Below, piece after piece: positions 13,721 to 31,695 of a stretch of DNA of 64,000 nt (positions within the stretch are counted from its first letter, which is position 1; each line of letters starts with the position of its first letter). A program made the translations under genes and the position numbers. Under the pieces are notes generated by a model that made no database searches, was not told the origin of the DNA, and saw nothing but the letters and a program-made list of their open reading frames with translations. The stretch comes from a virus. The stretch is from positions 1 through 64,000 of the IMG/VR virus record IMGVR_UViG_3300032073_000003; one strand, 5' to 3'.

Positions 13721-16693
13721 TTATATGCCGTCATCAAACCATGGGTTAAAATATACATAACCTCCTGTATTAAATTCAGGATACATATTTGGAGGTGATG
13801 CTGGTTGAGAGTTATTTTTTAATGTACTCCATTCATACCTGGCATTCTTAGCAGCTTGTTCTGCTGATAGTCCTTCACCTATCCACTTATCATAAAGTGA
13901 TTCATAAGTAGCAGAATTAGTTGGACTAGGGTTTCTTGAATTAGGTATATGTTCCATCGGCCCACCTCTTCCAGGAAATACTTTATAATCTGGATACATC
14001 TGATTCATAGCATCTGTTTGCCATCTATTAGTAATAGCATTAGTATATTGATTTCTTAAGTTATTTCTCATAGCTAATTTAGAGTTATCATACTGTTGAT
14101 TAGCCATTGTAGTTTGATCATATACTCTTTGATTAGTTGCTTGTCTTAACATGCTTTCCTGATTTCTAACATCAGTTGCTTTAAGTTCAAATTGATTTGC
14201 TATGTTAACATTAGAATTATTATACTTAGCTAATATATCTGCAGCATTTTTAGCAGCTTGTCCTTGAATACCTGATGATCTTGCAGACAATGCTTGAGGT
14301 CCAGCAAACTGTGCCATACCTTGTGTTTGTATATTTGCTTGTTCTGCATTAGCTGCCAGTTCTCTAGTAGGATCTAAAAATGTAGGTCTTGGTTCTTCTA
14401 AATCTACACCAGGTGCCCATGGCATATATTTTTTAATACCCATTAAATCTCCAAATGCACCTGCAGTTTTAATTGTATCTTGCAACCACCACTCTGCATT
14501 TCCACCAGGTACTGATACATTTACATCTTCTTGACAAGGAGGACATTCTCCAGATGGAAGACGTGTTGTAGGTATTTCACTTCCATCTGGACGCATGCAT
14601 AAACATTCTTCTAGTGGTTCTCCTGCTTCTTCTTCTATATCTTCAAAACTTAATCCGTGAATATATTCAATTTGTCCTGCATCTGTATTACCTCTATGTC
14701 CATCAATAGGGGTAATGTTTTTTACACCGGCAACTGCTTCATCTTCAAATCCTTGTGATCTACCATATGGTTTAAACCCTTCTATTGGTGAAAAATTTAA
14801 TAATGCTTGTCTTTCTGTTTCAGTAAAATCATTATCCTCTGAATCAAGTTGTTTCATTAAACTATTCATTCCAAGAAATGCTGCTTGTTCAATTTTTACT
14901 TGATTTTGTACACTTGCATCTGTAGGATCATAGTTTATACCTAAATCCTTAAAAGATTTTTGTAAACTTGTATATCCATTAGCTTTAATTTTATCGTACA
15001 TTGCCTGAATCTCAGAGTCAGATAAATCACGTCCCCTAGTAGTACCTTTAACTACATCATAAAATCCTTTATCATCACCTTCTCCTGATCCCGTACTTTC
15101 ATAATCTCTTAACTTATCTCCATTATTAGTAAACATATAAGAACCAAACACTGGAATCTTTAGACGATCTTTAGCAGTTGTTAATTTAAGATTTCTTTTT
15201 TGTTGATCTAAATGAGCTTTAACAACATCATCTTCTGTTAAACTATTAATAACAGAATCTGTAACCATTGGCCAATATCCCGGTTTTCTTGATTTTTTAT
15301 AATTTTCTTTCTCTCTAAGTTGAACTATAGTTTCCTCAAAAAGTTTCTTTCTTGCTATAGGATCTTGTAAACCTTGTTCAATTGATTGATATGTTGCTGC
15401 AGCTACAGCATTATCATTCCAATCAGTTGCTAAATCAGATCCTTCATATTTGTCAAAGCTAGTAGCACTAACTTTTTGTAAATATCTTTTACCATCATGA
15501 ATAACATATATTTTTCCACCACGACCTACTTTAGCATATGCATTCCTTAATGCTTGTTGAAATTTTTCTGGTGTATCATACTCATCTTTATTAATTTCTA
15601 CAGTACCTCCATCTTGCATTACTGATAATTCATCAGGTTGTTGTGCTGCAGCCATAGATTGTTGTATTAAACTAATTACATCTTGTTCAGGCATACCTAA
15701 CTCAATAAATATTTGTGCTATACTTTCAGGTGGAATTTGATCATATAATAAAGCTTGTACAACTTGTTCTGGAGCAGCACCTTGTTCTAATGCAGATTGC
15801 ACTTGTTGCATAAGCTGCATCATTTGTTGTTGAGCTCCTTCTTGCTCTTGCATTTGTTGTCTATATATATCAGAATAACCACCTTGCTGCATCATAGGTT
15901 GTGGTGCAGATTGAAGTTGTTGAGGTGGTTCCTGCATAGGTTGAGGTTGAGCTACTGGTCTTCCCTCATTCATACCCATAGCCTCATTTAAAAAGTTTTC
16001 ATTACCTCCTTGTTCTTCTTTTTCTTTTTGACTTTCAAGTTGAGATTTTAATTGTGCTAATTCTTTACTAGGTAGTATTTGTTCTTCTGTAATTCCTTTA
16101 GCTTCCATACAAGGTCTTGCTACTACAGGTATACCTTGTGGGAATCCTTTCATAGATTCTTGTTTTAAAGCAAGACATCCTAGCTTAACTACGTAATTTT
16201 TAATCATTAACTCAGCAGTTTTCTTTTCTATTGCATTTGAGTTAGGATCTTCTAGCAACACTCTATACTTTTGTATATCATATTGTTTAGCAAGGTTAGC
16301 AGGAGTATATGATTTTTTACCACACGGTTTACCAAACATAGTTAAGATTTCACAATCTTTTATTTTCATTGATCTTGTATCACTAAAAATAAAAGTATCT
16401 TCAGGAAGATTTAAAGGCACACCTCCAGCATTATGTCTAGGTCCTTTAATAATTTGTGTTTCAGGAAAAAAGTCACCATTAACATCTCCATATACAAGTT
16501 CCCCACCTTCAGCTTCTACATTAGATTCTTCTCTAGGATCGGCAGTTATATATCTACTTTCCTTAAGTTTAGGTTTTCTCATTTCTCTATTGTAGTCTCC
16601 ACCACCCATTGGGGCAATATCATTAACTAAGCTACCATCTACTTGGTATCCTGTTTTAGCTTTGGCTTGTTTTTTAATTCTTACTTTTATCAT
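13721..16693 (-). CDS. Large virion protein with KAKxG N-terminus and GA-PE helical repeat (990 aa)
   Basis: The open frame extends upstream to an ATG at 16732. I chose the ATG at 16693 because it lies 5 nt after the stop of the preceding gene and gives the N-terminus M-I-K-V-R-I-K-K, matching the basic starts of the two upstream giants. K-A-K-T-G follows at once, a degenerate form of the tag found through this region. Residues about 50-190 contain a conserved phage-like region (E-G-G-E-L-V-Y-G-D, then G-G-V-P-L-N-L-P-E-D-T). Residues about 280-360 are Gln/Met-rich with a helical motif (A-A-P-E-Q-V, A-Q-I-F-I-E-L-G-M-P-E) shared with the 1391-aa neighbour. A Cys cluster (C-L-C-M ... C-P-P-C) near residues 695-720 may bind metal. 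The C-terminal third is Asn/Gln-rich. Probably virion cargo; exact function unknown. Confidence 0.7.
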   Translation of the reverse strand: MIKVRIKKQAKAKTGYQVDGSLVNDIAPMGGGDYNREMRKPKLKESRYITADPREESNVEAEGGELVYGDVNGDFFPETQIIKGPRHNAGGVPLNLPEDTFIFSDTRSMKIKDCEILTMFGKPCGKKSYTPANLAKQYDIQKYRVLLEDPNSNAIEKKTAELMIKNYVVKLGCLALKQESMKGFPQGIPVVARPCMEAKGITEEQILPSKELAQLKSQLESQKEKEEQGGNENFLNEAMGMNEGRPVAQPQPMQEPPQQLQSAPQPMMQQGGYSDIYRQQMQEQEGAQQQMMQLMQQVQSALEQGAAPEQVVQALLYDQIPPESIAQIFIELGMPEQDVISLIQQSMAAAQQPDELSVMQDGGTVEINKDEYDTPEKFQQALRNAYAKVGRGGKIYVIHDGKRYLQKVSATSFDKYEGSDLATDWNDNAVAAATYQSIEQGLQDPIARKKLFEETIVQLREKENYKKSRKPGYWPMVTDSVINSLTEDDVVKAHLDQQKRNLKLTTAKDRLKIPVFGSYMFTNNGDKLRDYESTGSGEGDDKGFYDVVKGTTRGRDLSDSEIQAMYDKIKANGYTSLQKSFKDLGINYDPTDASVQNQVKIEQAAFLGMNSLMKQLDSEDNDFTETERQALLNFSPIEGFKPYGRSQGFEDEAVAGVKNITPIDGHRGNTDAGQIEYIHGLSFEDIEEEAGEPLEECLCMRPDGSEIPTTRLPSGECPPCQEDVNVSVPGGNAEWWLQDTIKTAGAFGDLMGIKKYMPWAPGVDLEEPRPTFLDPTRELAANAEQANIQTQGMAQFAGPQALSARSSGIQGQAAKNAADILAKYNNSNVNIANQFELKATDVRNQESMLRQATNQRVYDQTTMANQQYDNSKLAMRNNLRNQYTNAITNRWQTDAMNQMYPDYKVFPGRGGPMEHIPNSRNPSPTNSATYESLYDKWIGEGLSAEQAAKNARYEWSTLKNNSQPASPPNMYPEFNTGGYVYFNPWFDDGI

Positions 16694-16697
16694 TGGT

Positions 16698-19600
16698 TTA
16701 GTATAAGTATTCAACTTGTCCTCCTGATGCAAGGTAATTATTTAATTGGTCTTGAGTCATAAAAACTTCTTGACCTTCATCATAATATGGTGAATTAGTT
16801 CCTCCTTGTTCCATTTGATTATCTGGCATTATCATTCCATTTGGCATCATATGGTATCCAGGAGGTACATTTTCATTTTGCATATATCCTCCATCTTCCA
16901 TGTATCTTCCATATTTAGCCATAGTTGATGCCATTCCATAATTATCCTGACCCATTTGATCATATCTAAACATTCCCAAATTTTGTCCAGTAGTTGAACC
17001 ATAATTACCTCTATTTTGAAAATTAGCACTTGCATAATTATTTTCAGGTGCTACAAGATCTAAAGTATTATTATATTCTCTTTTATTACTACCAGCATTT
17101 TCAAAAATATTTGCAACTCCTCTTGCTCCTGCATTAAATAGATTTACATTAGCTTCATAATCTCTTGGAAATTTTTTCATATTAAAATCTGCAGAACCTT
17201 GACCACCATTTTCATCTGGAAATAATAAATCAGCATTTTCTCCAATATTCCCTGCTATCTCATAAGTAGGGTAAGAATCATTTGGATTATACATATTATC
17301 TTCAACACTAGTTTGAAAAGGATTTATCATAGTATTTTCACCAACACCGAAACCTGTAAATTCACTAACACCACCATTCCTATAAGTAGGAATATATCCT
17401 CCATATTCTTGGTTTTTAATAATTTTTGCTGCTGCCCTATCATCTCTTCTCTCAGCTCTCCTAGTCTGTCTTGCTGCTTGTCTAGCATCTTGAAACCTTT
17501 GTCTATCTTCTGATTTATATGATTTATTTAATTGCTTTTGAGATTTTTTTCCTACTACCATATCTCTCATAGAATCTGTATTATAAGCATAAGCATTTTC
17601 ATAAGGATTTGTCACACCTTCATTACCAATTGCATTAATATCTGCTCCAGCCATTCTATTTGGATCTTCCCAGTAATCTTCTCCAAAATTACCTTCACCT
17701 AAATATTTAGAATATCTTCTATTTTTTCTTCCTTGTCCTATATCATCTTTAACACCATTAACACTATTCATTAAATTTTGATATATTCCCTCATCATATC
17801 TAGTATTTTTAATTACATCTTCAGATAAGTTATTATTTCCTCCACCAAAATAAACTGTTCCTTCTTTAGGTCTTCCTAACCAATTATTTTTAAACTCTAC
17901 TCTACTTACAGGTCCTGCTGTATTACCTGTAAAATTTGACATTTGCATGTATCTATTGTTTCTTCTTCTGTTCCATGGTAGTAATGCTCCTAAAACTCCT
18001 CTTGATGTTCCAGGTCCTTGTATATAGTTAGTATTATATTGTACCATTGGCACACATCTTTGTAAACGTTCATTCCACATTTGCCCATATCCACATTGTT
18101 TATTTACTTGCATTCCATCATCTGCTTGAGGCATATCATATGGTTCATAGTATTCTGATTCCATACCACCTGAGATAAACTTAGTAAGAGGATTTTCAGC
18201 ATCCATATCTGTAAACCCTCCTAATTCCATCATTGCTGGTGCTTGCATTTGTTGTTGCTGCATAGCCATCATTTCTTCTTCAGATGGTCCCATACCTTGA
18301 GGTTGTTGCTGACCTTGAGACATTATTTGCTGCATAACTTGAACTACTTGTTCTTCAGGCATTCCTAACTGAACAAATATCTGAGCTACAGCTTCAGGTT
18401 CTAACCCACCTTGTAATAACTGCATCATTACTTCTTCTGGTTGAGCACCACTTTCAAGAGCTCCTTGTACTTGTCCTATAATTTCTTCCATTTGATTTCC
18501 ATTATTTTGCAATCCTCCTCCTTCTTGAGAATATTGCATTTCAGTAGGATTAGCTAAATCTTCTTGTTTTCCATTAGACATTAATGTTTGCATAATTTCA
18601 GGATTTCCCTTTGCTAAATCATATATGTCACTTGTCGTAGCTTTATTTGAACTATTTTTTAAATTACTAATAAACCCATCTTTTATTTTTTGAACATCAC
18701 CTATATTAGTATCTGTTCTATCTCCTCTACCAAAAGCATTAGAATCATTTGTATTTGCACCACCATTTTTATAAAATGCTAAAAGATTTTTAGTAAATTT
18801 CTTTTTACTAATAGTACCACCTTGTTTTTTTGGTTCCGGTAAAGTATCCCAATCTAAATTATACATATCACTTATTGGAGTAACATTAGGTGTAGAATCA
18901 ATAAAAGGAATATAATTAGAAGGATCTATAATATTTTTTCCATCTCCAATTTGAAGTTCTCTTTTGAAACCAGGTATTATAACATCCTCTTCACTTGGAC
19001 GTGTCATATAATATCCTAAACCACCAGCAATTAAACCTGCTCCAATATTAAAATTCCTACCTTTTCTACGAAAGTAATCAGTATAGTTTTTAATATCTTC
19101 TGCTGTATTTACATCATCTAATGGCATTCCACTTTTTTCCTTAGCACCATAATTATAAATATCTTGACTTACATCTATAATATTTTTACCTCTAGTTCTA
19201 ATTGGATTATATCCAAACATTTGAGGAAGCCACTGACCAGTATAAAGACTTTCTCCTACCCTACCTATTTTATTTCCTGTTGATATTTCAGCAAATGTTT
19301 TTGGTGGTGTAGCTGTAAATTCTTTACGGCTTATTAAACTTTTAAGTGGATTTCTATTTAGAGGTAAAAATTTAACATCACCTCTAGTACTTCCCATTAT
19401 ACTTTTATATAATGAAGGTACTAAAGGTCTAGTAACTTCAAACATTGTATTAGTACCATTTTCTATTAAATTTAAATTTTCATCATAAACATTAAATGCT
19501 TTTGTTTCTTCATTAGGTTCATAATAAAATCTATTTCTAAAAGTTGTTTTAGAAGCATTACTAGGAATTCCAAAATAAGGACCCTGATCTCCAGGTTTAT

Positions 19601-20864
19601 ATGTATATGAAATATCAAAAAACTTAAGTCCCGCATCATCTTCACCTAAACTAATTTTAGAATTACCTGGATAAACACCACCTATTGTTTCTCGACCTAC
19701 TGGTATTACCTCTTCTAAAAGAAAAGATGATCTTCCTTCAGTATTACCTTTAACTAAAATATCTTGTATAGCTTTTGAAGGCATTGTTAACCTATCTACA
19801 CTTAAGTCATCTGTAATTTTATTTTTACTAAATGCTGATGAAGCATCAATAACTTTTTCTTTATTGTTTAAAATACTTTGTAGTTCATTAACATTTTGAG
19901 TAAAATAAGATTCTAACTTAGGATCTTTTACTAGCCCTTTACCTTTCCAAGATGATCTAAAAGGTGGACGTGGAATTTTACTTAAACCATATCCTACTGC
20001 AGTATTTATAGGTAATAATTTACCAAAAGCAGATGCTCCTTGCATTTGAGGAACTTTATTATACCAATCATAACCTTTTTTAATACCTGTAGTAATATCT
20101 TTAATAAATTTACCATCTTTAGCTTTAGGTAGTTCTTGTGACATTTCTCCTTCGTTTAACCAATTTTGATTTTCCCAACCATTACTTACAGGACTATAAT
20201 CAGGAAGATAATCACTTATCATACTTGATTGTGGATTTACAAATTGAACACCAGCTTGTTGCTGAACTAAATCTTCTATAGAAAAAGGTTTTTGATTACT
20301 ATTATTAGATTGATTTAAATTTGGATCTTGTTGTGCATATCCTCCTTCATTAAAATAACCACCGTATTTAAAAGCTTGTTGCTGCATTTGTTGTTCATCA
20401 AAACTATCTTCTGTAGCATAATCACTAATATGAGAATTGTCTTCTTCAGATTCAGACATCATAAGCTGTTCTTCTTCTTGTTGTTCAGCCATATCTTCAT
20501 CATTAGATCCTGTTGAATCTGACTGTTCTGAAGTTTCTCCCTGTTGTTGTTCTTCTCCAACTGGTTCAGGATTTATATATCCTTCTTCCATAAGTTGTTT
20601 AATTGCAGATTGTATGACCAACTGAGACATATTTCCGTCAGCTCCATAGTTATTAATTAATTCATAATATACTATATCAGCAGGAGTATCTGCTATTAAA
20701 CTGTTATATGCACTAGTATACATTTGCTGAAACATTTGCTGGTCTTGACCTGAGTTACCTACAGACATTCCTTTTTGTGCTTTTGTTAAAAACTGTTTTG
20801 TTTTATTAAGATAACCTGGAGTTTCTCCTTCTTTTGCTTTTCTTATCCTTACTGTTTTTTTCAT
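16698..20864 (-). CDS. Large modular cargo protein with PKAQ-type tags (about 1388 aa)
   Basis: The first in-frame ATG is at 20873, but ATG 20864 gives M-K-K-T-V-R-I-R-K-A-K, which resembles the starts of the neighbouring giants; I favour it. Tag copies are T-K-A-Q-K-G near residue 25-30, L-P-K-A-K-D-G at 20112-20135, and a weak copy, M-P-Q-A-D-D-G, near 18120. After the second copy there is a module of about 400 residues ending with a Gly/Ala-rich hydrophobic stretch (G-A-G-L-I-A-G-G-L-G). A Gln-rich helical repeat (A-Q-P-E-E-V, A-Q-I-F-V-Q-L-G-M-P-E) matches the downstream gene. A C-G-Y-G...C-V-P motif and several G-G-Y boxes follow. The C-terminus (L-N-N-Y-L-A-S-G-G-Q-V-E) loosely resembles the C-tags of neighbours. 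A promoter-like motif lies just upstream. No enzymatic motif was recognised. Confidence 0.7.
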   Translation of the reverse strand: MKKTVRIRKAKEGETPGYLNKTKQFLTKAQKGMSVGNSGQDQQMFQQMYTSAYNSLIADTPADIVYYELINNYGADGNMSQLVIQSAIKQLMEEGYINPEPVGEEQQQGETSEQSDSTGSNDEDMAEQQEEEQLMMSESEEDNSHISDYATEDSFDEQQMQQQAFKYGGYFNEGGYAQQDPNLNQSNNSNQKPFSIEDLVQQQAGVQFVNPQSSMISDYLPDYSPVSNGWENQNWLNEGEMSQELPKAKDGKFIKDITTGIKKGYDWYNKVPQMQGASAFGKLLPINTAVGYGLSKIPRPPFRSSWKGKGLVKDPKLESYFTQNVNELQSILNNKEKVIDASSAFSKNKITDDLSVDRLTMPSKAIQDILVKGNTEGRSSFLLEEVIPVGRETIGGVYPGNSKISLGEDDAGLKFFDISYTYKPGDQGPYFGIPSNASKTTFRNRFYYEPNEETKAFNVYDENLNLIENGTNTMFEVTRPLVPSLYKSIMGSTRGDVKFLPLNRNPLKSLISRKEFTATPPKTFAEISTGNKIGRVGESLYTGQWLPQMFGYNPIRTRGKNIIDVSQDIYNYGAKEKSGMPLDDVNTAEDIKNYTDYFRRKGRNFNIGAGLIAGGLGYYMTRPSEEDVIIPGFKRELQIGDGKNIIDPSNYIPFIDSTPNVTPISDMYNLDWDTLPEPKKQGGTISKKKFTKNLLAFYKNGGANTNDSNAFGRGDRTDTNIGDVQKIKDGFISNLKNSSNKATTSDIYDLAKGNPEIMQTLMSNGKQEDLANPTEMQYSQEGGGLQNNGNQMEEIIGQVQGALESGAQPEEVMMQLLQGGLEPEAVAQIFVQLGMPEEQVVQVMQQIMSQGQQQPQGMGPSEEEMMAMQQQQMQAPAMMELGGFTDMDAENPLTKFISGGMESEYYEPYDMPQADDGMQVNKQCGYGQMWNERLQRCVPMVQYNTNYIQGPGTSRGVLGALLPWNRRRNNRYMQMSNFTGNTAGPVSRVEFKNNWLGRPKEGTVYFGGGNNNLSEDVIKNTRYDEGIYQNLMNSVNGVKDDIGQGRKNRRYSKYLGEGNFGEDYWEDPNRMAGADINAIGNEGVTNPYENAYAYNTDSMRDMVVGKKSQKQLNKSYKSEDRQRFQDARQAARQTRRAERRDDRAAAKIIKNQEYGGYIPTYRNGGVSEFTGFGVGENTMINPFQTSVEDNMYNPNDSYPTYEIAGNIGENADLLFPDENGGQGSADFNMKKFPRDYEANVNLFNAGARGVANIFENAGSNKREYNNTLDLVAPENNYASANFQNRGNYGSTTGQNLGMFRYDQMGQDNYGMASTMAKYGRYMEDGGYMQNENVPPGYHMMPNGMIMPDNQMEQGGTNSPYYDEGQEVFMTQDQLNNYLASGGQVEYLY

Positions 20865-20877
20865 AAAATACATTGTA

Positions 20878-20894
20878 TATATTAATATACTAAA
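20878..20894 (-). promoter_or_regulatory. Promoter-like TTTAGTATATTAATATA before cargo genes
   Basis: Identical over 17 nt to the element at 49876 and in a gene gap, so probably not chance. It would drive the 1388-aa cargo gene and those behind it. Contains the palindrome TATATTAATATA. Confidence 0.5.
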
Positions 20895-20923
20895 TTTAAA
20901 TTTAATCTATAAACTTATATAGT

Positions 20924-23900
20924 TTAAACATCTTCTATTATCCAACCTTCTTTGGCATATTGGTCTATTTCTTTTTGACTTAAGTTTACCACCATACCAC
21001 CATCTTTTTCTTTTTTAATTGGTTTATCAAAAAGACCTTTAAGTTTTATATAGTTTTCTTTTATAGGATTATTTACATACTCGTCTAAATATTCTTGAGG
21101 TATATTTATACCTGCTAATCCCAAACCTCCTGCTATTCCTGCAGCATAACCATATCTTTCAAGTAAACTTTGTAAATTACCTCCCATTGTTGCAGGGTCA
21201 AATTTATCCCCTCTAAGTTTGTCCATATTAACATCAACATATTTATTAGAAAAAGGAAGTCTTCTATGTATTTTTACACCAGGATCCATTATAGAATTAT
21301 ATGGAACAGTTCCTGTAAAATTATTACCTTCTCTAACTAACACCCCATTTCTATTCAGTTCTCTTCCATTAGTTATATTTATATTAGTACCTGGTACATT
21401 TGTATCAAAACTTGCTGCAAAAACTCCTGGATATTTTTCATTAATATTACCCATCTCAGCCCAATTACCTTCACCTTGTACTTGTTTTTTACCCATTCTA
21501 AATTTTCCACCATGAGCAGGACTTATTATTCCTGTATTTTTAACATAATCTAAATTATCTCCAAATTTTCTATATGCTACACCTGGATTTATATTTTTTG
21601 AAGAAGGTAGTGTTTTTCCATAAAAAGGTATAAAATTTAAAGGACTTCCTGTAAATGGACCAAATTCTTCTACTGAAAGTCCAAATGTTAATGGGTTTAT
21701 CATTACAGGAGCTATAGTTTTTGCTATTGCATTTGCAGTACCTAAAGTACTTGTATTTATATCTCTAAGTATATTTTTTGTAAAATTTGGAGTATACTTA
21801 TAAACATCTTTTCCTAAGTTAAATTTAGAATAATTTTTACCTCCAGTTTTAATTAATTTAGCTAATGATGATAACCCTCTTTGAGCTTCTGGTAATTCAC
21901 CACCTTCTTGATTCATAATCAATGGGTCTCTTAAGTTAATATCTTTACCTGAAAATTTGTCCCATTTATCAAAATGATGATGCTTTTTTCTAGGAAAATT
22001 TTTTATCTTATCTTGTAGACTTAACATGCCAGGTTTATTTGGATCAATTCCCATTTTTATATAACGGTTATATTGATTAACTAATTCATTTAATCTATAG
22101 TTATATTTTAATATAGGAGAACTATCATCTAAGACACCTAGTAAATTAGCACCAATTTCATTTCTTGTAAGAGGTTTAAATTTTCCATAATATCCTTGAG
22201 GTCCTAATCTACGATTTTCTTCCAAGTTATTAACAGCATACTTAAGAACTTTATCTGACCCAAACTTTTTTATCATTCCTTTTCTAATTAAATCCCGCAT
22301 TTCTCCTGAAGGTGCTGAATTATATTGATGAAAAAGTCTTTTATGCTCATCATTCATTGGTGAAGGAAAATCTATAGAACGAGCAAATTTAGGTCCTTTA
22401 ACATCAGCTGCAAGTAACTTAGCTTTTTGCATTTCAATTGCTCCAGGACTCATAGGTTTAAAATCAAAATCATCAATACCATGACCTTTAAATTTAGTAA
22501 GAGAATTTGTGAGCAAAGGTCCTTTTTCTAGATTAAATGTTTTAGCTAACATTTTATCAAGTTCATCTAAATTTTTAATACCTTTTTGATTAATGAGATT
22601 TTGTATTGTTTCTTGTGCAGGACCAAATTCAAATCCTCCTATATCTGACATCTGATTTCTTTTTGTCCATTTAAGATCATCTGCTATTTTTATAGTTCTA
22701 GGTTTTTTTTCTATTTGTGAAATATTTAGTTCATCTTTTGGATTAAGCTTAAGCATAGCTTTATCAACTAAAGCTTTCTTTTCTATATCTGAAAGCTCAT
22801 TATATCGTCTACCTCCAAATTCAGGTATAGGTTTTCCTTTAATAAAATTTTTAAGATAATTTTTTGATTTCCCCAAATATTTTATGAACTTTCCCCATTG
22901 AGCTTCTGGTAATTCACCACCAAATTTATAACCAAGAGGATCTATTTTTTTCCTAAAATCTATTCCAAGACCTGTTTTATCAAATATTTTATCTCTTGTT
23001 TTAGGGAAATAAGATTTACTAAATCCTTTTTCTAAAGATGCGGGATTACCATAAAAGAATCCTTTACCTGTAGATGGATTTGCAGCTGTAAAAGAATAGT
23101 TAATCTTTGGATTAATAGTTGCTAATTTTCCATGTTTAAGACTTTGTCCAACACCTTTAGCAATTGGTAAAGCATTTTTAACATATTTTCCTACAATAGG
23201 TGCGGCAAAAGAAGCACTAAGATAGTCACCTTTAGCTAAATGACCATCAGGTTTAAATGATTCATATGCATAAAAAGGTGCTGCATATTTCCATTCATTA
23301 GCTAACCAATTTTTTCCATACTTACCTAAGCCTCCTTGTCCTCCGCTATATAATGTAGCATATGCAGCAGCAGCATCCATACCTAATTCTGAAGTTCTAT
23401 CTAAACTAAAATCTCTAGATAGTTCATCTCCCCAATGTAAAGGATTAAGTTTATTATATAAACTTGCCATTATAGCCGGTGCATTTCCAGAAAGATCTTT
23501 ATCTCTAAGTCCTTCATTCATTATAATTTCACCTTGTTCATTTTCAAATCCTGAATTTCTTGCTTGTTCTTGTAACTCATTAAAACTTTGAGTTTGACCT
23601 GGTTTCCACATAGTTGCATTTGGTCTTAAGTCCATTGCATAACCAATAGCTTGACCTGGATTAGTTATAACATCCCAAGCTTTAGTTCCAAATCCAATTT
23701 CTTCACCCGCAGGACCTGCTTTAAGTGTATTACGATCAAGATCATATCTATGTTGTCTTAAGTTATATAGATTATTTATTTTATCCATATAAGTTACTGG
23801 AAGAGTTTCTAAATTCTTTGCAATTTTTTTATCTACAAAATCTTCTAAACTTTTTCCTTTTTCTATTATTCCAGTTTGTTTTTTTGCAACTTCTTTTTGT

Positions 23901-25417
23901 TTTAATAAATCTTCATATTCTTTTTCAAGAGATTCTTTTCTAGGTGCATAAAAATCAAAAACACTTTTACCATCTTTAGTAACATTACTATTTAATATGC
24001 TAATTTTATCTTCTAAAGATAAGGCTGGATTACTATAAGCTTGTTCTATTAATTCTCTTTCTTGTCTTGGAATGTCCATATTATCCCTCATATAACTATT
24101 TTCTGCTATATCTTCTCCTGTTAACTTTTGTAAATCTTCAGCAAATTTTCTTTCTACATTTTCATTTCTTACTCCTTCAATACCAGGTAAATTACTATAA
24201 ATTCTATTATAATCCATATTAGAAAATGCATCATAACCTACATTTTGAGCATTTTCTTGTCCTTCACGATATGTTTTTTCACCAAGCTTTCTTTGGTTAA
24301 TAGCTGCATCTAATGCCATTCCATCTGACATTTCATTCTCTTTAGATGGTGTGTAAATTCCTTCTAATACTCTATTTAATTTTTCTCTTCTTATTTTCTT
24401 TTCTGTAGGAGTCTTACCTTGATCTACCCACCAATCTTGATATTTCTTATCTGCATCAACAGCAATTTTCCATATTTCTTTACCATCTATATTTTCAGTT
24501 CCACTAACTCTTCCAAAATCAAAATCTTTTTCTCTATCCCATTTTACTCTATCTTCTTCTATTTTATCATAACTACTTAATATTTCATTTGTATTATAAT
24601 CATAGTCATCTTCAATAGCTTTTGATACTAACTCCTTAAAATGTGATTGCATGTTTTCAGTAACACCATCTTTTGGTGATAACTCATTAATCACTTGTTC
24701 AGGAGTTTTATTCTCTTCTAGTGCAGTACTATATATTTTATTCAGCATTGAATTATCATAGGATTCTTCTCTATAATCTATGAGTTCACCCATTTGTTCT
24801 CGTACCTGTTTACCATCTAATCCCCACTTATTTACAAAATCTCGATCTTTAAAACCATTATTAATTATTTTATGTTGCAATATTTCATATGGCCAAATTG
24901 AATATGCACCATTATTATTTTTTTGTATATAATAGTCACCTTCATTTTTTAGTTCATCAACTTGTTCTTGTGTTAATGTCTTATTTTCAAAAAGAGGTTT
25001 AATTTTATCTGATTTTTTAGACTTAGTAAAATCAGTATAATAATTATTTCTACGTTCTTCTTCTTGTTGTAGCCATTCTTGATATGCTTGTTGTTCTATG
25101 TCATTTAATCTAAGATTTGTCAACCTTCTCATCCTCCCATAAGTATCAAATTTGTCAAAGTTTGGATACGGATTTTCATCATTATCCACTCCAAATATAT
25201 TATTACGAAATGCATCAGCAAAGTTATACTCTAGATTACCACCTTTATAATCAGTCTTTCCATAGTTTGGATCTAAGTCTTTTTGTTTAGATCCAAACTT
25301 CTGCCTCTTCATTTTTAATTTCTTCTGCATTTTTAATCTATTTCTATCATCTATAGACTCACCTGTTTGGGCTTTAGGTAATAATTGAGGGATGCTTGTA
25401 ATTTTATATTTTTTCAT
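20924..25417 (-). CDS. Large modular cargo protein with three PKAQ-type tags (1497 aa)
   Basis: The N-terminus M-K-K-Y-K-I-T-S-I-P-Q carries the tag L-L-P-K-A-Q-T-G at once. Two further copies, G-G-E-L-P-E-A-Q-W-G (22892-22921) and G-G-E-L-P-E-A-Q-R-G (21875-21904), split the protein into an N-terminal part of about 840 residues and two modules of about 340 and 300. The N-terminal part is highly charged, then has a Gly/Ala-rich stretch near residues 690-720. The last module has an A-Y-R-K-F-G ... T-G-I-I-S-P arrangement that could suggest an ADP-ribosyltransferase-like fold, but I would not rely on it. It ends with a Gly/Ala-rich hydrophobic segment and the C-tag L-S-Q-K-E-I-D-Q-Y-A-K-E-G-W-I-I-E-D. 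The stop is 2 nt before the start region of the 2091-aa gene's neighbour on the map. Function unknown; ejected cargo is inferred. Confidence 0.7.
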   Translation of the reverse strand: MKKYKITSIPQLLPKAQTGESIDDRNRLKMQKKLKMKRQKFGSKQKDLDPNYGKTDYKGGNLEYNFADAFRNNIFGVDNDENPYPNFDKFDTYGRMRRLTNLRLNDIEQQAYQEWLQQEEERRNNYYTDFTKSKKSDKIKPLFENKTLTQEQVDELKNEGDYYIQKNNNGAYSIWPYEILQHKIINNGFKDRDFVNKWGLDGKQVREQMGELIDYREESYDNSMLNKIYSTALEENKTPEQVINELSPKDGVTENMQSHFKELVSKAIEDDYDYNTNEILSSYDKIEEDRVKWDREKDFDFGRVSGTENIDGKEIWKIAVDADKKYQDWWVDQGKTPTEKKIRREKLNRVLEGIYTPSKENEMSDGMALDAAINQRKLGEKTYREGQENAQNVGYDAFSNMDYNRIYSNLPGIEGVRNENVERKFAEDLQKLTGEDIAENSYMRDNMDIPRQERELIEQAYSNPALSLEDKISILNSNVTKDGKSVFDFYAPRKESLEKEYEDLLKQKEVAKKQTGIIEKGKSLEDFVDKKIAKNLETLPVTYMDKINNLYNLRQHRYDLDRNTLKAGPAGEEIGFGTKAWDVITNPGQAIGYAMDLRPNATMWKPGQTQSFNELQEQARNSGFENEQGEIIMNEGLRDKDLSGNAPAIMASLYNKLNPLHWGDELSRDFSLDRTSELGMDAAAAYATLYSGGQGGLGKYGKNWLANEWKYAAPFYAYESFKPDGHLAKGDYLSASFAAPIVGKYVKNALPIAKGVGQSLKHGKLATINPKINYSFTAANPSTGKGFFYGNPASLEKGFSKSYFPKTRDKIFDKTGLGIDFRKKIDPLGYKFGGELPEAQWGKFIKYLGKSKNYLKNFIKGKPIPEFGGRRYNELSDIEKKALVDKAMLKLNPKDELNISQIEKKPRTIKIADDLKWTKRNQMSDIGGFEFGPAQETIQNLINQKGIKNLDELDKMLAKTFNLEKGPLLTNSLTKFKGHGIDDFDFKPMSPGAIEMQKAKLLAADVKGPKFARSIDFPSPMNDEHKRLFHQYNSAPSGEMRDLIRKGMIKKFGSDKVLKYAVNNLEENRRLGPQGYYGKFKPLTRNEIGANLLGVLDDSSPILKYNYRLNELVNQYNRYIKMGIDPNKPGMLSLQDKIKNFPRKKHHHFDKWDKFSGKDINLRDPLIMNQEGGELPEAQRGLSSLAKLIKTGGKNYSKFNLGKDVYKYTPNFTKNILRDINTSTLGTANAIAKTIAPVMINPLTFGLSVEEFGPFTGSPLNFIPFYGKTLPSSKNINPGVAYRKFGDNLDYVKNTGIISPAHGGKFRMGKKQVQGEGNWAEMGNINEKYPGVFAASFDTNVPGTNINITNGRELNRNGVLVREGNNFTGTVPYNSIMDPGVKIHRRLPFSNKYVDVNMDKLRGDKFDPATMGGNLQSLLERYGYAAGIAGGLGLAGINIPQEYLDEYVNNPIKENYIKLKGLFDKPIKKEKDGGMVVNLSQKEIDQYAKEGWIIEDV

Positions 25418-25419
25418 AA

Positions 25420-28400
25420 CTATATTTCTTCAAATGTATAACCTTGTGCTTTTAATCTTTTCATAGTAGCTTCATCTACTATATCTCCTAACTCTACACT
25501 ACCACCTTCTTTCCATCTTCCATCTCCCCATTTTTCCATATTTTTGTCTTTTACACCAGTTCCTGGAACTAACATTTCTCTAATTTCTCTTACTAATTCT
25601 TTTGATCCTAATTTATTATTAGTCACGTCAGGTAAAAAGACATCTGGATTAATGTTAAAAACACTATTTCTTTCTCCGGGTTTTCCTATATAAGATAAGT
25701 CTACTAAGCCAAGTTTATCTCCAACTGATCCAATATTATCTAGACCCATATAATCAAGTCCTACACCTAAGTCATTAAGTTCTTTAACAGTATTATATAT
25801 AACATCTGAATCTACTGATAGACCACTAGAATAATCTAATTTAGGCATAAATTGTACAAATCTTTTACTATTTTGCAAATTATCTTCTCCAACCCTAAAA
25901 GCTTCTGTAGGAAAGGCTGCTTCAGCATAAGAACTATTAAATTTTTTACCGGCATTTATAAGATTTTGCATATCATTCTCATCTCCAAAAAACTTTCCAA
26001 ATTTTATATATTCTTTATCATTTAATAAATTATTAAATAGTCTCCCTTGACCACCCGCTAATTGATCTCCATGTTTACCTCGTGCTTGTGTAATAGGTAA
26101 CCCTGAATAATCTAATCTAAATTTACTATATTCATCTTGAATATTAAATAACTTTTTTTGCACCTCATTTTGTGCTTTTACAAGTTCATCAATTTTAGCT
26201 TCTTTAGCAGATTCACTTAATCTTTTATCATATGTTACTCTATCTATTGCCTTATCAAATTGTTTTACTTTATTTGCAAATTTAGCATGATCATATCTAC
26301 TAGTTAATTGTTTTCCAAAATCTCTTAATCCAGATATTTCAGCAGCTCCTCTTCCTAACGAATAATAATTGTTATTCCGCATCATGTTCCAAGCAGCTTC
26401 TGTACGTAATAATTCTTCAGGAGGTGTGAATAAAAATTTTTTACTAGTAGTTATAGAATTAGGTGGGTTTAAATATTTCATCCATTTACCATATTTTGCT
26501 TTAGGTAAATCTCCTCCTTGTTCATATTTACCTTTCCATCCTGTATCAAAATCTAACTTATTTTGTTTTATATATTTGACAAAGTCTAGTTTTTGTTGAG
26601 GATTTAAATTAACCAAATCAGCAAAAGGATAAGTTTCATCAATATCAAACATTTTACTACCTTTAAGACCTACCACAGAACCATCAGATTTGGACGCACT
26701 AAAATGTAAAGGCATATCATAATTGTTACTAGGCATATAGTCATGTACATAATAACCATCCTTTACTCCACCATCAGTTTTCCAAGTCTTATTTGGTTTA
26801 TAATATTTACTGAACCAATCATTATAACTTCCTTCACTGAAGTCTCTTGGTGACTTCATTTTAAATTGATAATTACCATACCGACCGGACATATCTGGAT
26901 AATGTGTTGCAAATAAAGCATCAACATTATGCATAAGATGCATACCCGATCTATAACCATATGTATCCATTGGAACATGAGCAACTTGATATTTTGCTAT
27001 TGATAAAGGATCATTAAAATCAACACCTGCATTTTTCATGTTTTCAAATTCTGAAATACTATTAGGATAATTAGGTACTGACATATCAAATTTATGTCTT
27101 GTATGTTCCTGCATACCTTTACCATCATGAGGAACTTTACCAGTTACAGCTCTATATCTAGTTGCATTGTGATCTAATGCTAATTTAGTTAATTCTTCAG
27201 TTCTTTTAGTTGAACGTGCAGCATAATTTAAATCATTAAAATTCTCACCAATAAGTCCTTCTTTTTGTAGGTTTTTAATAAATTGTCTTCTTCGTAAGAA
27301 TCCTTGTGCTTCTTTAATTTGCTCTTTAGTTATTTTTTTTATATAGTCTGTAGATTTTGGAATTATACTATTTTCAAGTTTTAATGCATAAGGTAATACG
27401 CTGTTACCTGTAACTATTTTATTATAAGTATCAACTGGTTTTATATATTTACTTAAAATTTTACTTCCCTGTTTTATAACCCTACCATCCCATGCCTTTG
27501 GTAATTCTCCTCCTAATTTCTTTTCTTCCAATGTACTTCCCGCAGCTCCTGCTGCTCCTAATCCTAAACCTACTGTAGGTAATCTATTAAGAAGCCATGA
27601 TAAGTTTTGATACATTTCAGGAGATTCTTCCATAAAATCTAATATTCTAGTATTGCTTAAATAGGATTTACTATTATTAGATTTTACTACCCCCATAGGA
27701 TTTCTTTTAAAAAACGTTGAAGCTACTTGTAATTTTTCTGGAGTAATGTTTTCATACCTATGTTTAATTAATCCTTTTAATAACATAGCTTCTCTAAGTT
27801 CATTTAAATAAGCAGAAGGTTCTTTACCTGATTTTTTAAAATAGTCATATGCCTTTTGTTGATTTTCATTAAGTTCTTTTTTTGGTCTAATCATTTTAAG
27901 AGCATCTCTATCAATTTGAAGTTTCCTACCTCTTTGTAAACCATGACCTCTTATTTCATGAGCAAGTATAGGTGTATTAAATGGAGAACTATAATCTACC
28001 CCCATTCTAATAAAACCAGGTAAAGCTTTTTCACCAAGTTGAGTCTTATTTAAATTAAAAAAATCATAATTATTAATATCACCAGCCCATGCATCCAAAT
28101 ATATATTATTAGGGTTTGTATAAGAAGCGTTAGAATATAAATATTTACTATTAAAAAAATCTTTTTCTGGTAATCTATTTTGGTCTAAAAACTTACTTGC
28201 TACAGAAGCACTATTCCTTACATTACCCATTAACTCTAATTCCTGCAATCTTGCTTTATAATTTAATTCAGCTTGTTTGTCAATAAAATTTTTAGGATAT
28301 CCAATATGTTCTAAGTGTTCAGATTCTTGTTTAAGCAATCTTTTTTTTCCTTCAGGACTTTTTAATTCATATAACATGTCACCTACATAATTCTGAATAG

Positions 28401-31400
28401 GTTCTATTCCTGTAGCTAAATGTTTAAGCATCTCTTGTTGTAATAGCGGATCTTTTAAAACATTTGTTTTGAAAAAAGGATGGGAATTTACTACTACATC
28501 ATCAAATTTAGTAGCAAATGGTAATGTTTTTTTAAGAGCTTTAGATATGGTACCTACTTGTGCTTTAGGTAGTTGTCCTCCTTTTTTAAGATCAAAATGA
28601 AGAGGATTAGTTTGTGTTAATATAAAAGGTTTGCCAAATTTGTTAAGTAACCTAGGAGCTAAATCTTTAAAATAAGAATCATCTTGAGCTCCTATTTCAC
28701 TTTTTCCTTCTATCCATTTATCGACATAATCTTTTGGATGAAATCCCCAAACATCTCTTGTTGTAAAATCAAACTTTTTAGGAGTTATTCTTCTAACAAA
28801 TGTCATATGACCCCCTATGTCATCTATAGGTTCAATTGGATTTCCCCATAAACCAAAGTTAGGAAGATATCCATCTTTAAACGAACTTTCAAATGGAAGT
28901 ATTTCTCCAAATTCATCAAATAGTGTATTATATGCTCCTATAAGTCCATCAGGATTTTTTGACTTAACAGCTTGTTCTATAATTTCATCTTTCCATCTAG
29001 TAAACTCATCATATGTTCTATGTGATTTTATTTGAGGATCTGCTACATCCATCCGACCAAAAAGTTTTTTACCACTAAGAGGTTCTTTATTAGCGAAATT
29101 AGAAAGTAATTCATAAGACTTTAAAGGACCGTGATAATCAGTATATTTTTTTAATGCATCTTTACTTTCTAGTTCTGATAACCAACGTGATTCTTTAAAC
29201 TTTGAATCATCTCCAAAGTAAAGATCTACTAAACTTCTATCTTGATGACCTGGAAACCCTGTTTCTTTTCCAGAATAAGTTTCTAATAATTTCTTTTTTG
29301 AATCAAGATCTTCTAAAAATTTAGACACATTATAATGTTCATTTCCTGAACTTAAACCCATAGCATGCTTTGCATACTTCTTCATAATCTCTGGAGCAAG
29401 AATAGCTGAAATATCTATACCCTTATCTATAATACCTCTTGACAATCCTTGTATAATCTTATTACTACTACCTGCTCCTGTTATTAAAGGTTTAGCAAGA
29501 CTAATTAAACCCAATTTAGCTTTAGGCAATTCTTCTACTACATATCCACCCTTTACATATTTATCTATTTCTTCAGGAGTTAATTCAAGTTGAAAACCAC
29601 CTTCTTGTTTATCTTGTAAATGTTCTGGCAATTGATCTTTCCAAGAACCTCTTCCAAATGCTAATGCAGCTTCTTTGTCTTCACCAAAATCATATACCTC
29701 TCCTCTTTTTAAAGCTTCTTGATATATTGGCCACCATCCATTTTCTCCAGATACTTCCTTCCAGTTTTCTTGATCATCAGCATAAGGTTTAGAATCTTGA
29801 AATAAAGTTGGAAATGCTACCCAACCTCTACCATCAACGTATTCTGCAGCCATTAAATGAGATGATACACTTGTAGGAAACTGAAGTCCTGAAGGAGTCC
29901 ATGCTTTATAATCATAATTATCTCTTACACCTCTTCTTTGTTTTACACTATGACCATCTTGAGCTTTAGGAACATCTTTACGTGTAAAATCAGAAGATCT
30001 TTCCATATTTGGAATTTTACTATCATCATAATTAGATAATAATTCTTCTCCAGGTTGTATGTCTCTTATAGCTATTAAAGATATGTGATCTCCATTATCT
30101 ACTTCAGTAACATTAGGTTCTTCGCTATGATTATATCCACCAATCTGTTTAGAAGGAAATGGTGCTTGATACATTTCACCATTTTTTTCAAATTCTTTTC
30201 TTATATGAGATACTCCAATTGATTGTCCTTTAGATATAGGTTCTTTAGAAAACACACCGGTTCCATGAATTGGAGATTCTTTTTCTTCTACTTGTATATA
30301 TACAGGAGTATCTACACCATGTTCTTTTGAATTAACAAAAGTACCTTCAATATTATCTTCTCTTTGAGCTTTAGGTAACTCTTCTTCTACTATATACCCT
30401 CCTTTTACATATTCTTCTATCTCAGCATCAGTAAGTTCTTTTGTTTCATATTCTCCTCCAAATTTATTTTCAGGTAAACCTAGACCAGCTACCCCTAATA
30501 AAGGAATTAAAGCTTTATAAATATTAGGATTAGTCATATCAAACATTCCGTTATTTCCTCTTAGAGATTTAGCATAATTACCAGGCACTTGATTTGCAAT
30601 AGTCACATCTCCAAAAATACCATCTAATACATCATCTATCTGAATGTTTGATAAACCTTGTTTTTCCATATAGGTTGCTAAATCATCAGTTGAAGTAAAC
30701 TCACCTAATTTATCACGAACTGTTTGCAACTCTTTTTCAGTAGTATAGTTGTTACTCTTTATGTTTTGCAATTCATCTTCTAAATCTGCTACACGTTTTT
30801 GATATCTTTCTATTGCCTTTTTTGAATTTGATTTCTTAGCTCTAGTTAGCATATCTTTATAAGCTTTAATATTATACTCCATTTTAGATATTACATCACC
30901 AGGTCCTGTTAAAGGTATTTCTGTCCAATGTTGTTTATTTGCATTAATCTTTAAAGAATTTGAAGATTTAGGTATAGCTAATTCATATAATCCATTAAAA
31001 CGAAGATCTTCAGGTGTATTAGAATTAAAGTAAAAATCATCTGTATAATTTAAAGACCCGTTATAATTCCTTGCTAACTCTTTGTTTCCTGTAAATACTC
31101 CAGTATAACCCTTATCTTTTTTATCTATCAATGTAGGGTTATATTTAGTAGTACCTCTATAAACTGTACTATAACCTTCAGGAAAAGCTTTCTTAAAGTC
31201 TTTACTATTAACTTGCACAAATTGCTCTGGTAATCCAGGAGAACCATCTGGTAATGTAAACGGTGATCCGTCTGCATTTTTCATCCATGTACTATTAGTT
31301 TTAGCAAATTTTTCTATATCTGCATACTCATCCATTAAAGCTTTATTCTTAGGAATATCTTTATTCCAATTACTCCAGTTTATTTCTGATTTAAACTTAT

Positions 31401-31695
31401 TAGATTTATTTATAATTTTACTAGGTACTGTAAAATTTGGTTTAAGATATTTTAAAAATTTACTTAAACCCGTTTGCGCTTTAGGTAGCTCTCCTCCTTG
31501 TTTTAACATAGGATATTCATCCACATAAGATGCTCCTGGAAAAGTATAGCTTTGACCAGGTTGCATCAATACAGGTTCTCCTACATCAGGTACTGCCCAT
31601 ACAGGATAGTCAACTCCTTCCATAGTAATTTGATTACCAGGAATTCTAGTGTTCTTACCGGGGTGAGCCCATTGCCCTCTAGGATCTTCTATCAT
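25420..31695 (-). CDS. Polyvalent modular cargo protein with seven PKAQ-type tags (2091 aa)
   Basis: This looks like a chain of at least seven modules. Residues 1-65 are a small domain (G-Q-W-A-H-P-G-K-N-T-R-I-P). Tag G-G-E-L-P-K-A-Q-T-G opens a module with ADP-ribosyltransferase-like features (V-Y-R-G-T-T near 175, V-F-T-G...A-R-N-Y near 200). After the second tag is a SET-like domain (about 465-555: G-T-G-V-F, N-H-S-E-E-P-N, G-E-E-L-L-S-N-Y). After the third is a Trp-rich domain (about 580-690). After the fourth is an unassigned module of about 310 residues. After the fifth is a domain with H1246-E-I-R-G-H. Two unassigned modules follow tags six and seven. The C-terminus is a tag-like E-A-T-M-K-R-L-K-A-Q-G-Y-T-F-E-E. 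The start overlaps the muzzle stop by 4 nt (ATGA). Domain calls are by eye. Confidence 0.75.
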   Translation of the reverse strand: MIEDPRGQWAHPGKNTRIPGNQITMEGVDYPVWAVPDVGEPVLMQPGQSYTFPGASYVDEYPMLKQGGELPKAQTGLSKFLKYLKPNFTVPSKIINKSNKFKSEINWSNWNKDIPKNKALMDEYADIEKFAKTNSTWMKNADGSPFTLPDGSPGLPEQFVQVNSKDFKKAFPEGYSTVYRGTTKYNPTLIDKKDKGYTGVFTGNKELARNYNGSLNYTDDFYFNSNTPEDLRFNGLYELAIPKSSNSLKINANKQHWTEIPLTGPGDVISKMEYNIKAYKDMLTRAKKSNSKKAIERYQKRVADLEDELQNIKSNNYTTEKELQTVRDKLGEFTSTDDLATYMEKQGLSNIQIDDVLDGIFGDVTIANQVPGNYAKSLRGNNGMFDMTNPNIYKALIPLLGVAGLGLPENKFGGEYETKELTDAEIEEYVKGGYIVEEELPKAQREDNIEGTFVNSKEHGVDTPVYIQVEEKESPIHGTGVFSKEPISKGQSIGVSHIRKEFEKNGEMYQAPFPSKQIGGYNHSEEPNVTEVDNGDHISLIAIRDIQPGEELLSNYDDSKIPNMERSSDFTRKDVPKAQDGHSVKQRRGVRDNYDYKAWTPSGLQFPTSVSSHLMAAEYVDGRGWVAFPTLFQDSKPYADDQENWKEVSGENGWWPIYQEALKRGEVYDFGEDKEAALAFGRGSWKDQLPEHLQDKQEGGFQLELTPEEIDKYVKGGYVVEELPKAKLGLISLAKPLITGAGSSNKIIQGLSRGIIDKGIDISAILAPEIMKKYAKHAMGLSSGNEHYNVSKFLEDLDSKKKLLETYSGKETGFPGHQDRSLVDLYFGDDSKFKESRWLSELESKDALKKYTDYHGPLKSYELLSNFANKEPLSGKKLFGRMDVADPQIKSHRTYDEFTRWKDEIIEQAVKSKNPDGLIGAYNTLFDEFGEILPFESSFKDGYLPNFGLWGNPIEPIDDIGGHMTFVRRITPKKFDFTTRDVWGFHPKDYVDKWIEGKSEIGAQDDSYFKDLAPRLLNKFGKPFILTQTNPLHFDLKKGGQLPKAQVGTISKALKKTLPFATKFDDVVVNSHPFFKTNVLKDPLLQQEMLKHLATGIEPIQNYVGDMLYELKSPEGKKRLLKQESEHLEHIGYPKNFIDKQAELNYKARLQELELMGNVRNSASVASKFLDQNRLPEKDFFNSKYLYSNASYTNPNNIYLDAWAGDINNYDFFNLNKTQLGEKALPGFIRMGVDYSSPFNTPILAHEIRGHGLQRGRKLQIDRDALKMIRPKKELNENQQKAYDYFKKSGKEPSAYLNELREAMLLKGLIKHRYENITPEKLQVASTFFKRNPMGVVKSNNSKSYLSNTRILDFMEESPEMYQNLSWLLNRLPTVGLGLGAAGAAGSTLEEKKLGGELPKAWDGRVIKQGSKILSKYIKPVDTYNKIVTGNSVLPYALKLENSIIPKSTDYIKKITKEQIKEAQGFLRRRQFIKNLQKEGLIGENFNDLNYAARSTKRTEELTKLALDHNATRYRAVTGKVPHDGKGMQEHTRHKFDMSVPNYPNSISEFENMKNAGVDFNDPLSIAKYQVAHVPMDTYGYRSGMHLMHNVDALFATHYPDMSGRYGNYQFKMKSPRDFSEGSYNDWFSKYYKPNKTWKTDGGVKDGYYVHDYMPSNNYDMPLHFSASKSDGSVVGLKGSKMFDIDETYPFADLVNLNPQQKLDFVKYIKQNKLDFDTGWKGKYEQGGDLPKAKYGKWMKYLNPPNSITTSKKFLFTPPEELLRTEAAWNMMRNNNYYSLGRGAAEISGLRDFGKQLTSRYDHAKFANKVKQFDKAIDRVTYDKRLSESAKEAKIDELVKAQNEVQKKLFNIQDEYSKFRLDYSGLPITQARGKHGDQLAGGQGRLFNNLLNDKEYIKFGKFFGDENDMQNLINAGKKFNSSYAEAAFPTEAFRVGEDNLQNSKRFVQFMPKLDYSSGLSVDSDVIYNTVKELNDLGVGLDYMGLDNIGSVGDKLGLVDLSYIGKPGERNSVFNINPDVFLPDVTNNKLGSKELVREIREMLVPGTGVKDKNMEKWGDGRWKEGGSVELGDIVDEATMKRLKAQGYTFEEI

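What the first reader, a model, noticed from the sequence alone, without database searches (positions are those of the whole stretch)
16650..31497. A recurring PKAQ-type tag punctuates four adjacent giant cargo proteins
At least 13 copies of a short motif near G-G-E-L-P-K-A-Q-x-G occur in four neighbouring genes. Copies lie at the N-termini of the 1388-aa, 1497-aa and 990-aa proteins and inside the 2091-, 1497- and 1388-aa proteins, where they separate dissimilar domains. Codons differ between copies, so protein-level selection is likely. Such a standard tag could be a virion-sorting signal, a maturation-protease site or a fusion linker. I do not know of a described function for it; I could not search.
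Basis: partly seen in the sequence, partly recalled or inferred. Interest (0 to 1): 0.9.

Follow-up and report, generated by a model that had tools for sequence, protein, structure and literature searches.

The report
PKAQ connector in crAss-like phage cargo
Relatives of the gut virus crAssphage that live outside the gut mark the starts and internal joints of their large, probably injected proteins with one standard short peptide, which looks like a shared loading or docking label combined with a building-block connector; its exact job is untested.

Summary
In detail: 13 PKAQ-type copies lie in four adjacent late genes (window 13721-31695) of a 119-kb crAss-like phage.

The tag is one half of a two-part module signature. 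An N-terminal leader (M..[VY][RK]I...P.A[QRK].G) starts three otherwise different protein families. An acidic C-terminal tail (L[TS].EEI..Y..GGY[IV]VE[ED]) ends many of the same proteins. Internal copies in the giant ORFs are joints: module n ends in GG, or in the whole tail, and LPKAQxG opens module n+1.

In an unbiased set of 80 relatives the leader is on 44/47 non-redundant '990-aa' proteins and 36/46 '1391-aa' proteins. It is on 0/46 and 0/42 of the two neighbouring untagged families. Homology blocks start and end at tags four to five times more often than expected. Codon use shows selection on the protein, not the DNA. 257 Gb of prokaryotic genomes hold one credible in-frame copy, on a misbinned crAss-like contig.

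The 990-aa family is related to phi4:1 gp040, found in virions by MS/MS, and its fold resembles 'cargo protein 1' of crAss phages. The leader is predicted disordered. A docking or sorting peptide for virion cargo fits best. No standard prohead protease was found.

The parts
16649..16693 (-). N-terminal leader of the 990-aa protein (MIKVRIKKQAKAKTG)
   Evidence: leader on 44/47 non-redundant orthologs
13721..16693 (-). 990-aa protein, probable crAss 'cargo protein 1' relative
   Evidence: HMM match to phi17:2 gp041; phi4:1 gp040 detected by MS/MS; Foldseek to phi4:1 S0A572 4.4e-8 and to 'Cargo protein 1 compact domain' 6.9e-4; sequence profile match to crAss001 gp45 not significant
20769..20864 (-). 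N-terminal leader of the 1388-aa protein (MKKTVRIRKAKEGETPGYLNKTKQFLTKAQKG)
   Evidence: regex leader on 36/46 non-redundant orthologs
20112..20135 (-). internal tag ELPKAKDG, 1391-aa ORF
16701..16763 (-). C-terminal tail of the 1391-aa ORF (FMTQDQLNNYLASGGQVEYLY)
   Evidence: tail on 43/47 non-redundant orthologs
25361..25417 (-). N-terminal leader of the 1497-aa protein (MKKYKITSIPQLLPKAQTG)
   Evidence: relatives start MAKYRITSIP..LP.AQ.G
22892..22921 (-). internal tag GGELPEAQWG
21875..21904 (-). internal tag GGELPEAQRG
20927..20986 (-). C-terminal tail of the 1497-aa protein (NLSQKEIDQYAKEGWIIEDV)
31489..31689 (-). N-terminal domain of the 2091-aa protein (aa 3-69), directly before the first tag; shared with phi17:2 gp041 and a Leptolyngbya phage protein
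   Evidence: hhalign probability 64% and 86%; hmmsearch alignment to the Leptolyngbya protein
31468..31497 (-). internal tag GGELPKAQTG
30382..30438 (-). internal tail motif ELTDAEIEEYVKGGYIVEE, directly before LPKAQ
30364..30384 (-). tag EELPKAQ, joined to the preceding tail motif
29953..29979 (-). internal tag KDVPKAQDG, after the SET domain
30028..30264 (-). SET domain (aa 478-556 of the 2091-aa protein)
   Evidence: Pfam PF00856 E=2.6e-9
29530..29586 (-). internal tail motif ELTPEEIDKYVKGGYVVEE
29509..29535 (-). tag EELPKAKLG, joined to the preceding tail motif
28552..28581 (-). internal tag GGQLPKAQVG
27484..27513 (-). internal tag GGELPKAWDG
26488..26517 (-). internal tag GGDLPKAKYG; the homologous module in G003 ends its protein with the C-tail instead
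25423..25494 (-). second type of C-terminal tail (ELGDIVDEATMKRLKAQGYTFEEI), 2091-aa protein
31692..37148 (-). crAss muzzle protein; fixes the cargo slot by synteny
   Evidence: orthologs in 12 records; Pfam crAss_MUZ PF25731 hit in this proteome (member not named)

Best explanation
Shown: the PKAQ tag is the N-terminal leader of a cargo module. Modules of the crAss-like cargo locus may carry a basic, disordered leader (M..[VY][RK]I...P.A[QRK].G), a domain, and an acidic tail (L[TS].EEI..Y..GGY[IV]VE[ED], or just GG). Giant ORFs are such modules fused end to end, so that the tag marks each joint. Inferred: the leader is a short docking peptide bound by a virion part (portal tunnel, tail barrel, muzzle or procapsid interior). 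It would load and orient cargo for N-to-C ejection, and internal copies keep each module dockable or add avidity. The tail is probably a second contact. The receptor is unknown.
For: Three different protein families share the leader at their N-terminus: 44/47 and 36/46 non-redundant members of two of them, against 0.3-1.4% of random windows and 0/46 and 0/42 in the untagged neighbours. The leader is conserved but predicted disordered (pLDDT 40-50 over aa 1-40), as expected of a binding motif. The 990-aa family is related to phi4:1 gp040, annotated as found by MS/MS in virions, and resembles crAss cargo protein 1 by fold. In crAss001, parts of cargo protein 1 are resolved bound to the portal and tail barrel, N-terminal parts lie in the tail, and ejection is inferred to be N-to-C (PMC10172136). 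Joint anatomy: 43 internal tails, 32 followed within 24 aa by a tag-like sequence such as GGYIVED|ISVPELNQAQKG. Of 59 distinct places where a tail-ended module is internal in a relative, 16 have the tag instead and 16 keep the tail, against 5% and 3% of random windows. Tags are absent from the muzzle, p1057 and p2466 families. Small tagged Lys-rich proteins sit beside the capsid gene in relatives.
Against: No receptor, co-structure or proteomics of a tagged phage. Probable cargo of the same locus (p1057, p2466) carries no tag, so the tag is not a universal packaging signal. Gut Crassvirales, phi14:2, phi17:2 and Fpv20 lack LPKAQxG, so the function is dispensable or served differently there. 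11 of 43 internal tails have no clear tag-like sequence after them. Homology of the 990-aa protein to crAss001 gp45 is not significant by profile alignment. The p1391 model is too poor to read.
Confidence: 0.42

Rival explanations
1. The tags are proteolytic processing sites: a phage or host protease cuts at GG/VE[ED]|..LPKAQ.G during maturation or after injection, so fused modules regain the same ends as stand-alone proteins.
For: Internal joints keep both the tail and the leader, with the tail in the same form as at true C-termini. T4 and giant phages cut short N-terminal targeting peptides of internal proteins (PMC5694885). Polyvalent proteins such as P1 DdrB can be processed (PMC5512222).
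Against: No S78 prohead protease in 10 records, with 4 control genomes ringing. The S77 search had no working control, so it is uninformative. The crAss001 structure paper has no mention of 'proteoly', 'cleav' or 'protease'.
Confidence: 0.24
2. The tags are passive flexible connectors left by module fusion and shuffling, kept because they tolerate recombination and unfolding, with no binding partner.
For: Homology blocks start and end at tags. The same module ends with a tail in one phage and a tag in another. The sequence is GG- and P-rich.
Against: Conservation is residue-specific (L, P, K, A, Q, G, partly fixed by the search pattern) and is found at true N-termini, where nothing is connected. 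Codon choice is free while the peptide is not.
Confidence: 0.22
3. The motif is a DNA-level recombination hot spot (a short repeated DNA sequence that promotes cassette exchange) rather than a peptide signal.
For: Module shuffling at tags.
Against: Codon entropy at tag positions is close to background for nearly every residue. N-terminal leaders are conserved where no shuffling is seen.
Confidence: 0.04

Closest known systems
crAss-like cargo proteins, cargo protein 1 (gp45) of PhiCrAss001 (PMC10172136)
   Same: Same genomic slot after the muzzle gene. The 990-aa family resembles cargo protein 1 domains by fold. crAss001 gp45 also has [YF]GG.L at both parts resolved in the virion (GG at 209 before 214-245; GG at 427 within 425-552).
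   Different: crAss001 and the other Crassvirales reference genomes tested have no LPKAQxG. Here several further giant, modular proteins share the leader and tail.
Phage T4 capsid targeting sequence (CTS) and giant-phage propeptides (PMC5694885)
   Same: A 10-20-residue N-terminal peptide shared by unrelated internal proteins.
   Different: No sequence likeness looked for or seen; no known prohead protease found here; copies also occur inside proteins and a C-terminal partner exists.
Encapsulin targeting peptides (PMC7925596)
   Same: A short peptide on diverse cargo, loaded into a container of HK97-lineage descent.
   Different: Those are C-terminal and bind the shell; here the receptor is unknown and the best-conserved element is N-terminal.
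Polyvalent proteins of phages and conjugative elements (Iyer et al. 2017, PMC5512222)
   Same: Giant virion-linked proteins with disparate domains; SET here, LysM, SLT, YkuD, amidase and M91 in relatives.
   Different: A search of that paper found no 'linker' and no 'crAss'; a standard leader and tail at module joints was not seen described there.

Membership tests
crAss-like phages (Crassvirales and close relatives) | Crassvirus major capsid, ring and muzzle proteins | tested here: met
   PF23898, PF25731, PF25702 and PF24228 hit in the window's proteome. 34 of 45 tag-bearing records carry PF23898. Assignment to a named family within the order was not tested.
crAss cargo protein 1 (gp45) family, for the 990-aa protein | position after the muzzle gene in the cargo block | tested here: met
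crAss cargo protein 1 (gp45) family, for the 990-aa protein | homology to the compact domain | tested here: inconclusive
   Foldseek E 6.9e-4 to 1.1e-2 to proteins named 'Cargo protein 1 compact domain', with low TM-scores; no PDB match; profile alignment to gp45 not significant
crAss cargo protein 1 (gp45) family, for the 990-aa protein | present in virions | tested here: inconclusive
   Only through a homolog: phi4:1 gp040 annotated from MS/MS. No tagged phage has proteomics at hand.
Polyvalent proteins | several disparate enzymatic domains in one polypeptide of a virion locus | tested here: inconclusive
   Window protein: only SET passes Pfam. Relatives have LysM, SLT, YkuD, amidase and M91.
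T4-type capsid targeting sequence | short N-terminal peptide shared by unrelated internal proteins | tested here: met
T4-type capsid targeting sequence | removal by a phage prohead protease | tested here: inconclusive
   PF04586 absent with working control; PF03420 search without working control; cleavage itself not testable here
Encapsulin-type targeting peptide | binding of the peptide to the shell interior | not testable with these tools
   needs structures or binding assays
Double-glycine leader (C39 peptidase substrates) | N-terminal leader ending in GG cut by a C39 peptidase | tested here: not met
   The L[TS]..EI..Y..GG element sits at C-termini or joints, not in an N-terminal leader; a C39 peptidase was not searched for

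The most novel reading that the evidence does not exclude
Leader and tail are plug and socket: the acidic tail strand (YIVEE) of one cargo module pairs with the basic leader strand (KVRI) of the next, chaining separate cargo proteins into a train that leaves the virion in order. In giant ORFs the coupling has become covalent, which would explain why the fused joint is exactly tail plus leader without its basic start.
Probability: 0.1. Interest if true: 0.88.

Novelty: new variant of a known kind. Interest (0 to 1): 0.62.

Why it matters
How crAss-like phages load some 5 MDa of cargo and thread it through a narrow tail is open. A peptide shared by several cargo families, with a matching C-terminal tail, gives a concrete handle. 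It predicts which uncharacterised giant proteins are cargo, splits them into modules for functional study, and offers a peptide whose receptor in the portal, tail or muzzle can be looked for directly. If sufficient for loading, it could become a packaging tag for phages of Bacteroidota.

Tried and rejected
Direct tblastn of the 2091- and 1497-aa proteins, a 60-aa composite tag and a p1003 ortholog in named phages gave no real match. Chance and cytoplasmic abundance were rejected. DNA-level repeat or recombination signal rejected by codon entropy. S78 protease not found; the S77 search is uninformative. Sortase LPxTG likeness was noted from memory and dropped without a test. Double-glycine leader likeness of the tail dropped because the position is wrong. 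Leader-tail pairing could not be read from the p1391 model (pTM 0.22, no coordinates). No PDB fold match for p1003. No paper with LPKAQ or PKAQ in a phage-protein context was found in the open-access library.

Full report
WHAT WAS CHECKED. The window is part of a 119,466-bp virus record with crAss-type capsid, ring and muzzle proteins. The ATG starts that give 990 and 1388 aa are the ones used by orthologs.

MORE THAN CHANCE. A position matrix trained on motif copies from other contigs finds 46 hits at threshold 12 in 12 phage records, against 0.3 in shuffled proteins. The same pattern in 257 Gb of prokaryotic genomes gave 62 matches. They are scattered over phyla and mostly in short or non-coding frames. 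The one credible copy, L319, lies on a 114.7-kb contig of a Pseudomonadales bin that also encodes a crAss capsid protein. Codon entropies at tag positions are close to those of the rest of the same genes, so selection acts on the peptide. Conservation drops sharply outside positions -6 to +7; part of that logo is fixed by the search pattern, but positions -6 to -4 and -1 are not.

WHO HAS IT. 34 of 45 tag-bearing records carry the Crassvirus capsid family; most of the rest are fragments. LPKAQxG is absent from crAss001, seven other gut or termite-symbiont Crassvirales genomes, phi14:2, phi17:2 and Fpv20, and present once in Leptolyngbya phage Lbo-JY46, at a protein N-terminus. So it marks a largely environmental crAss-like clade rather than all crAss phages.

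ANATOMY FROM AN UNBIASED SET. To avoid selecting on the tag, 80 loci were fetched by a conserved stretch inside the 990-aa protein. Gene order is constant: muzzle, modular giants, the 1391-type gene, the 990-type gene, p1057, p2466. Three families start with the same kind of leader: M..KVRIKKLPQARTGYQV (990 type), M..VRIYKAPDGKGKYINKTxxFLxKAQxG or the short VRLYKAQEGG (1391 type), and MAKYRITSIPQSLPKAQxG (1497 type). By pattern match the leader is on 44/47 and 36/46 non-redundant members of the first two, on 0/46 p1057 and 0/42 p2466, and in 0.3-1.4% of random windows. A C-terminal tail, L[TS].EEI..Y..GG.[IV]E[EYD], ends 43/47 of the 1391 type and 56/72 of the proteins in the giant slot, but none of 45 990-type and 44 p1057 proteins. 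Tag density is 0.32-0.38 per 1000 aa in the three tagged groups and zero in 158,000 residues of muzzle, p1057 and p2466.

WHAT THE INTERNAL COPIES ARE. Internal tails are followed by leader-like sequence..EEYRKGGYIVED|ISVPELNQAQKG.., which is the tail without its stop joined to the ITSIP..LP.AQ.G leader without Met and basic start. 32 of 43 have a tag-like sequence within 24 aa. In the window the joints at aa 438 and 722 of the 2091-aa protein are of this type. Elsewhere the same module ends in a tail in one phage and in GG.LPKAQ.G plus a further module in another. For example, G003 has ..YKKGGVVTNLSKKEIDKYIEDGYIIEDV* where the window has ..YEQGGDLPKAKYGKWMK.. Of 59 distinct such places, 16 carry the tag, 16 keep the tail, 23 have GG only (several of these are tail-leader joints that the pattern misses) and 4 neither; random windows give 5%, 3%, 27% and 65%. 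Homology-block boundaries cluster at tags. Part of that clustering arises because alignments extend through the conserved tag before stopping, but the module change at the tag is real.

WHAT THE PROTEINS ARE. The 990 type matches phi17:2 gp041 by HMM (small database, and two short stretches), and its phi4:1 counterpart gp040 is annotated from MS/MS of virions. The model of a 990-type ortholog has a well-predicted N-terminal domain (aa 45-205) and a long C-terminal helix, with the leader at pLDDT 40-50. Foldseek against predicted viral proteins ranks phi4:1 'structural protein' (4.4e-8), a Flavobacterium phage protein (7.8e-7) and several 'Cargo protein 1 compact domain' proteins (6.9e-4 and weaker). 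Global TM-scores are low, there is no PDB match, and profile alignment to crAss001 gp45 is not significant. So membership in the cargo protein 1 family is likely but not proven. In crAss001 gp45 a [YF]GG.L sequence directly precedes the tail-barrel segment 214-245 and starts the portal-bound domain 425-552 (structures from PMC10172136). That is suggestive only. The N-terminal domain of the window's 2091-aa protein (aa 3-69, just before its first tag) is shared with phi17:2 gp041 and a Leptolyngbya phage protein. Between tags the window protein has a SET domain. Relatives carry LysM, SLT, YkuD, amidase, M91 and lysozyme domains. Other modules have no Pfam match.

MECHANISM. Shown: leader, tail, joints, restriction to cargo-locus and some head-locus proteins of crAss-like phages, selection on the peptide, predicted disorder. 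Inferred: a conserved disordered peptide at the N-terminus of several different cargo proteins is most simply a docking motif for a common virion part. In crAss001 the N-terminal parts of cargo protein 1 lie in the tail and ejection is inferred to run N to C, so a leader in the portal tunnel or tail would fit. Processing would explain why joints keep both ends, but no S78 protease was found and the S77 test had no control. Passive connectors do not explain residue-specific conservation at true N-termini.

LIMITS. Regular expressions undercount variants and were written after seeing the sequences. Family sets come from one viral collection. The literature search covers open-access papers only. 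No experiment on a tagged phage was found.

Noticed in passing
L319 (WLWP01000004.1, 114,697 bp): A contig in a Pseudomonadales genome bin carries the tag and a crAss capsid protein; it is probably a misbinned crAss-like phage.
   Followed up: partly
L210 (PP438436.1, Leptolyngbya phage Lbo-JY46): The nearest named relative by capsid protein (27% over 99%) is reported from a cyanobacterial host; it has the leader on a 484-aa protein and a tail-like end on the next gene.
   Followed up: partly
window 25423-25494; L374, L381, G003 relatives: A second kind of C-terminal tail, ELGDEVDEATMK.L..LGYTFEQI, ends other giant proteins.
   Followed up: partly
G007:63969-65727, G008:19876-20905, G010:71622-72685: Small Lys-rich proteins (some starting MKTKCMSCGG) beside the capsid gene carry single tags; no such tagged gene was seen at this place in the window.
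   Followed up: no
window 27922-27960: HEIRGH, a zincin-like HExxH motif, in the module at aa 1042-1395 of the 2091-aa protein; no Pfam support. phi17:2 gp042 in the neighbouring slot has two HExxH-like motifs.
   Followed up: no
record position 91520-92200 (outside the window): A lone LPKAQGG in an early-region 226-aa ORF, probably chance.
   Followed up: no
window 2-3082 and record 111661-119466: A giant open frame runs off both ends of the record; the two halves may be one gene of a circular genome with an imperfect join.
   Followed up: no
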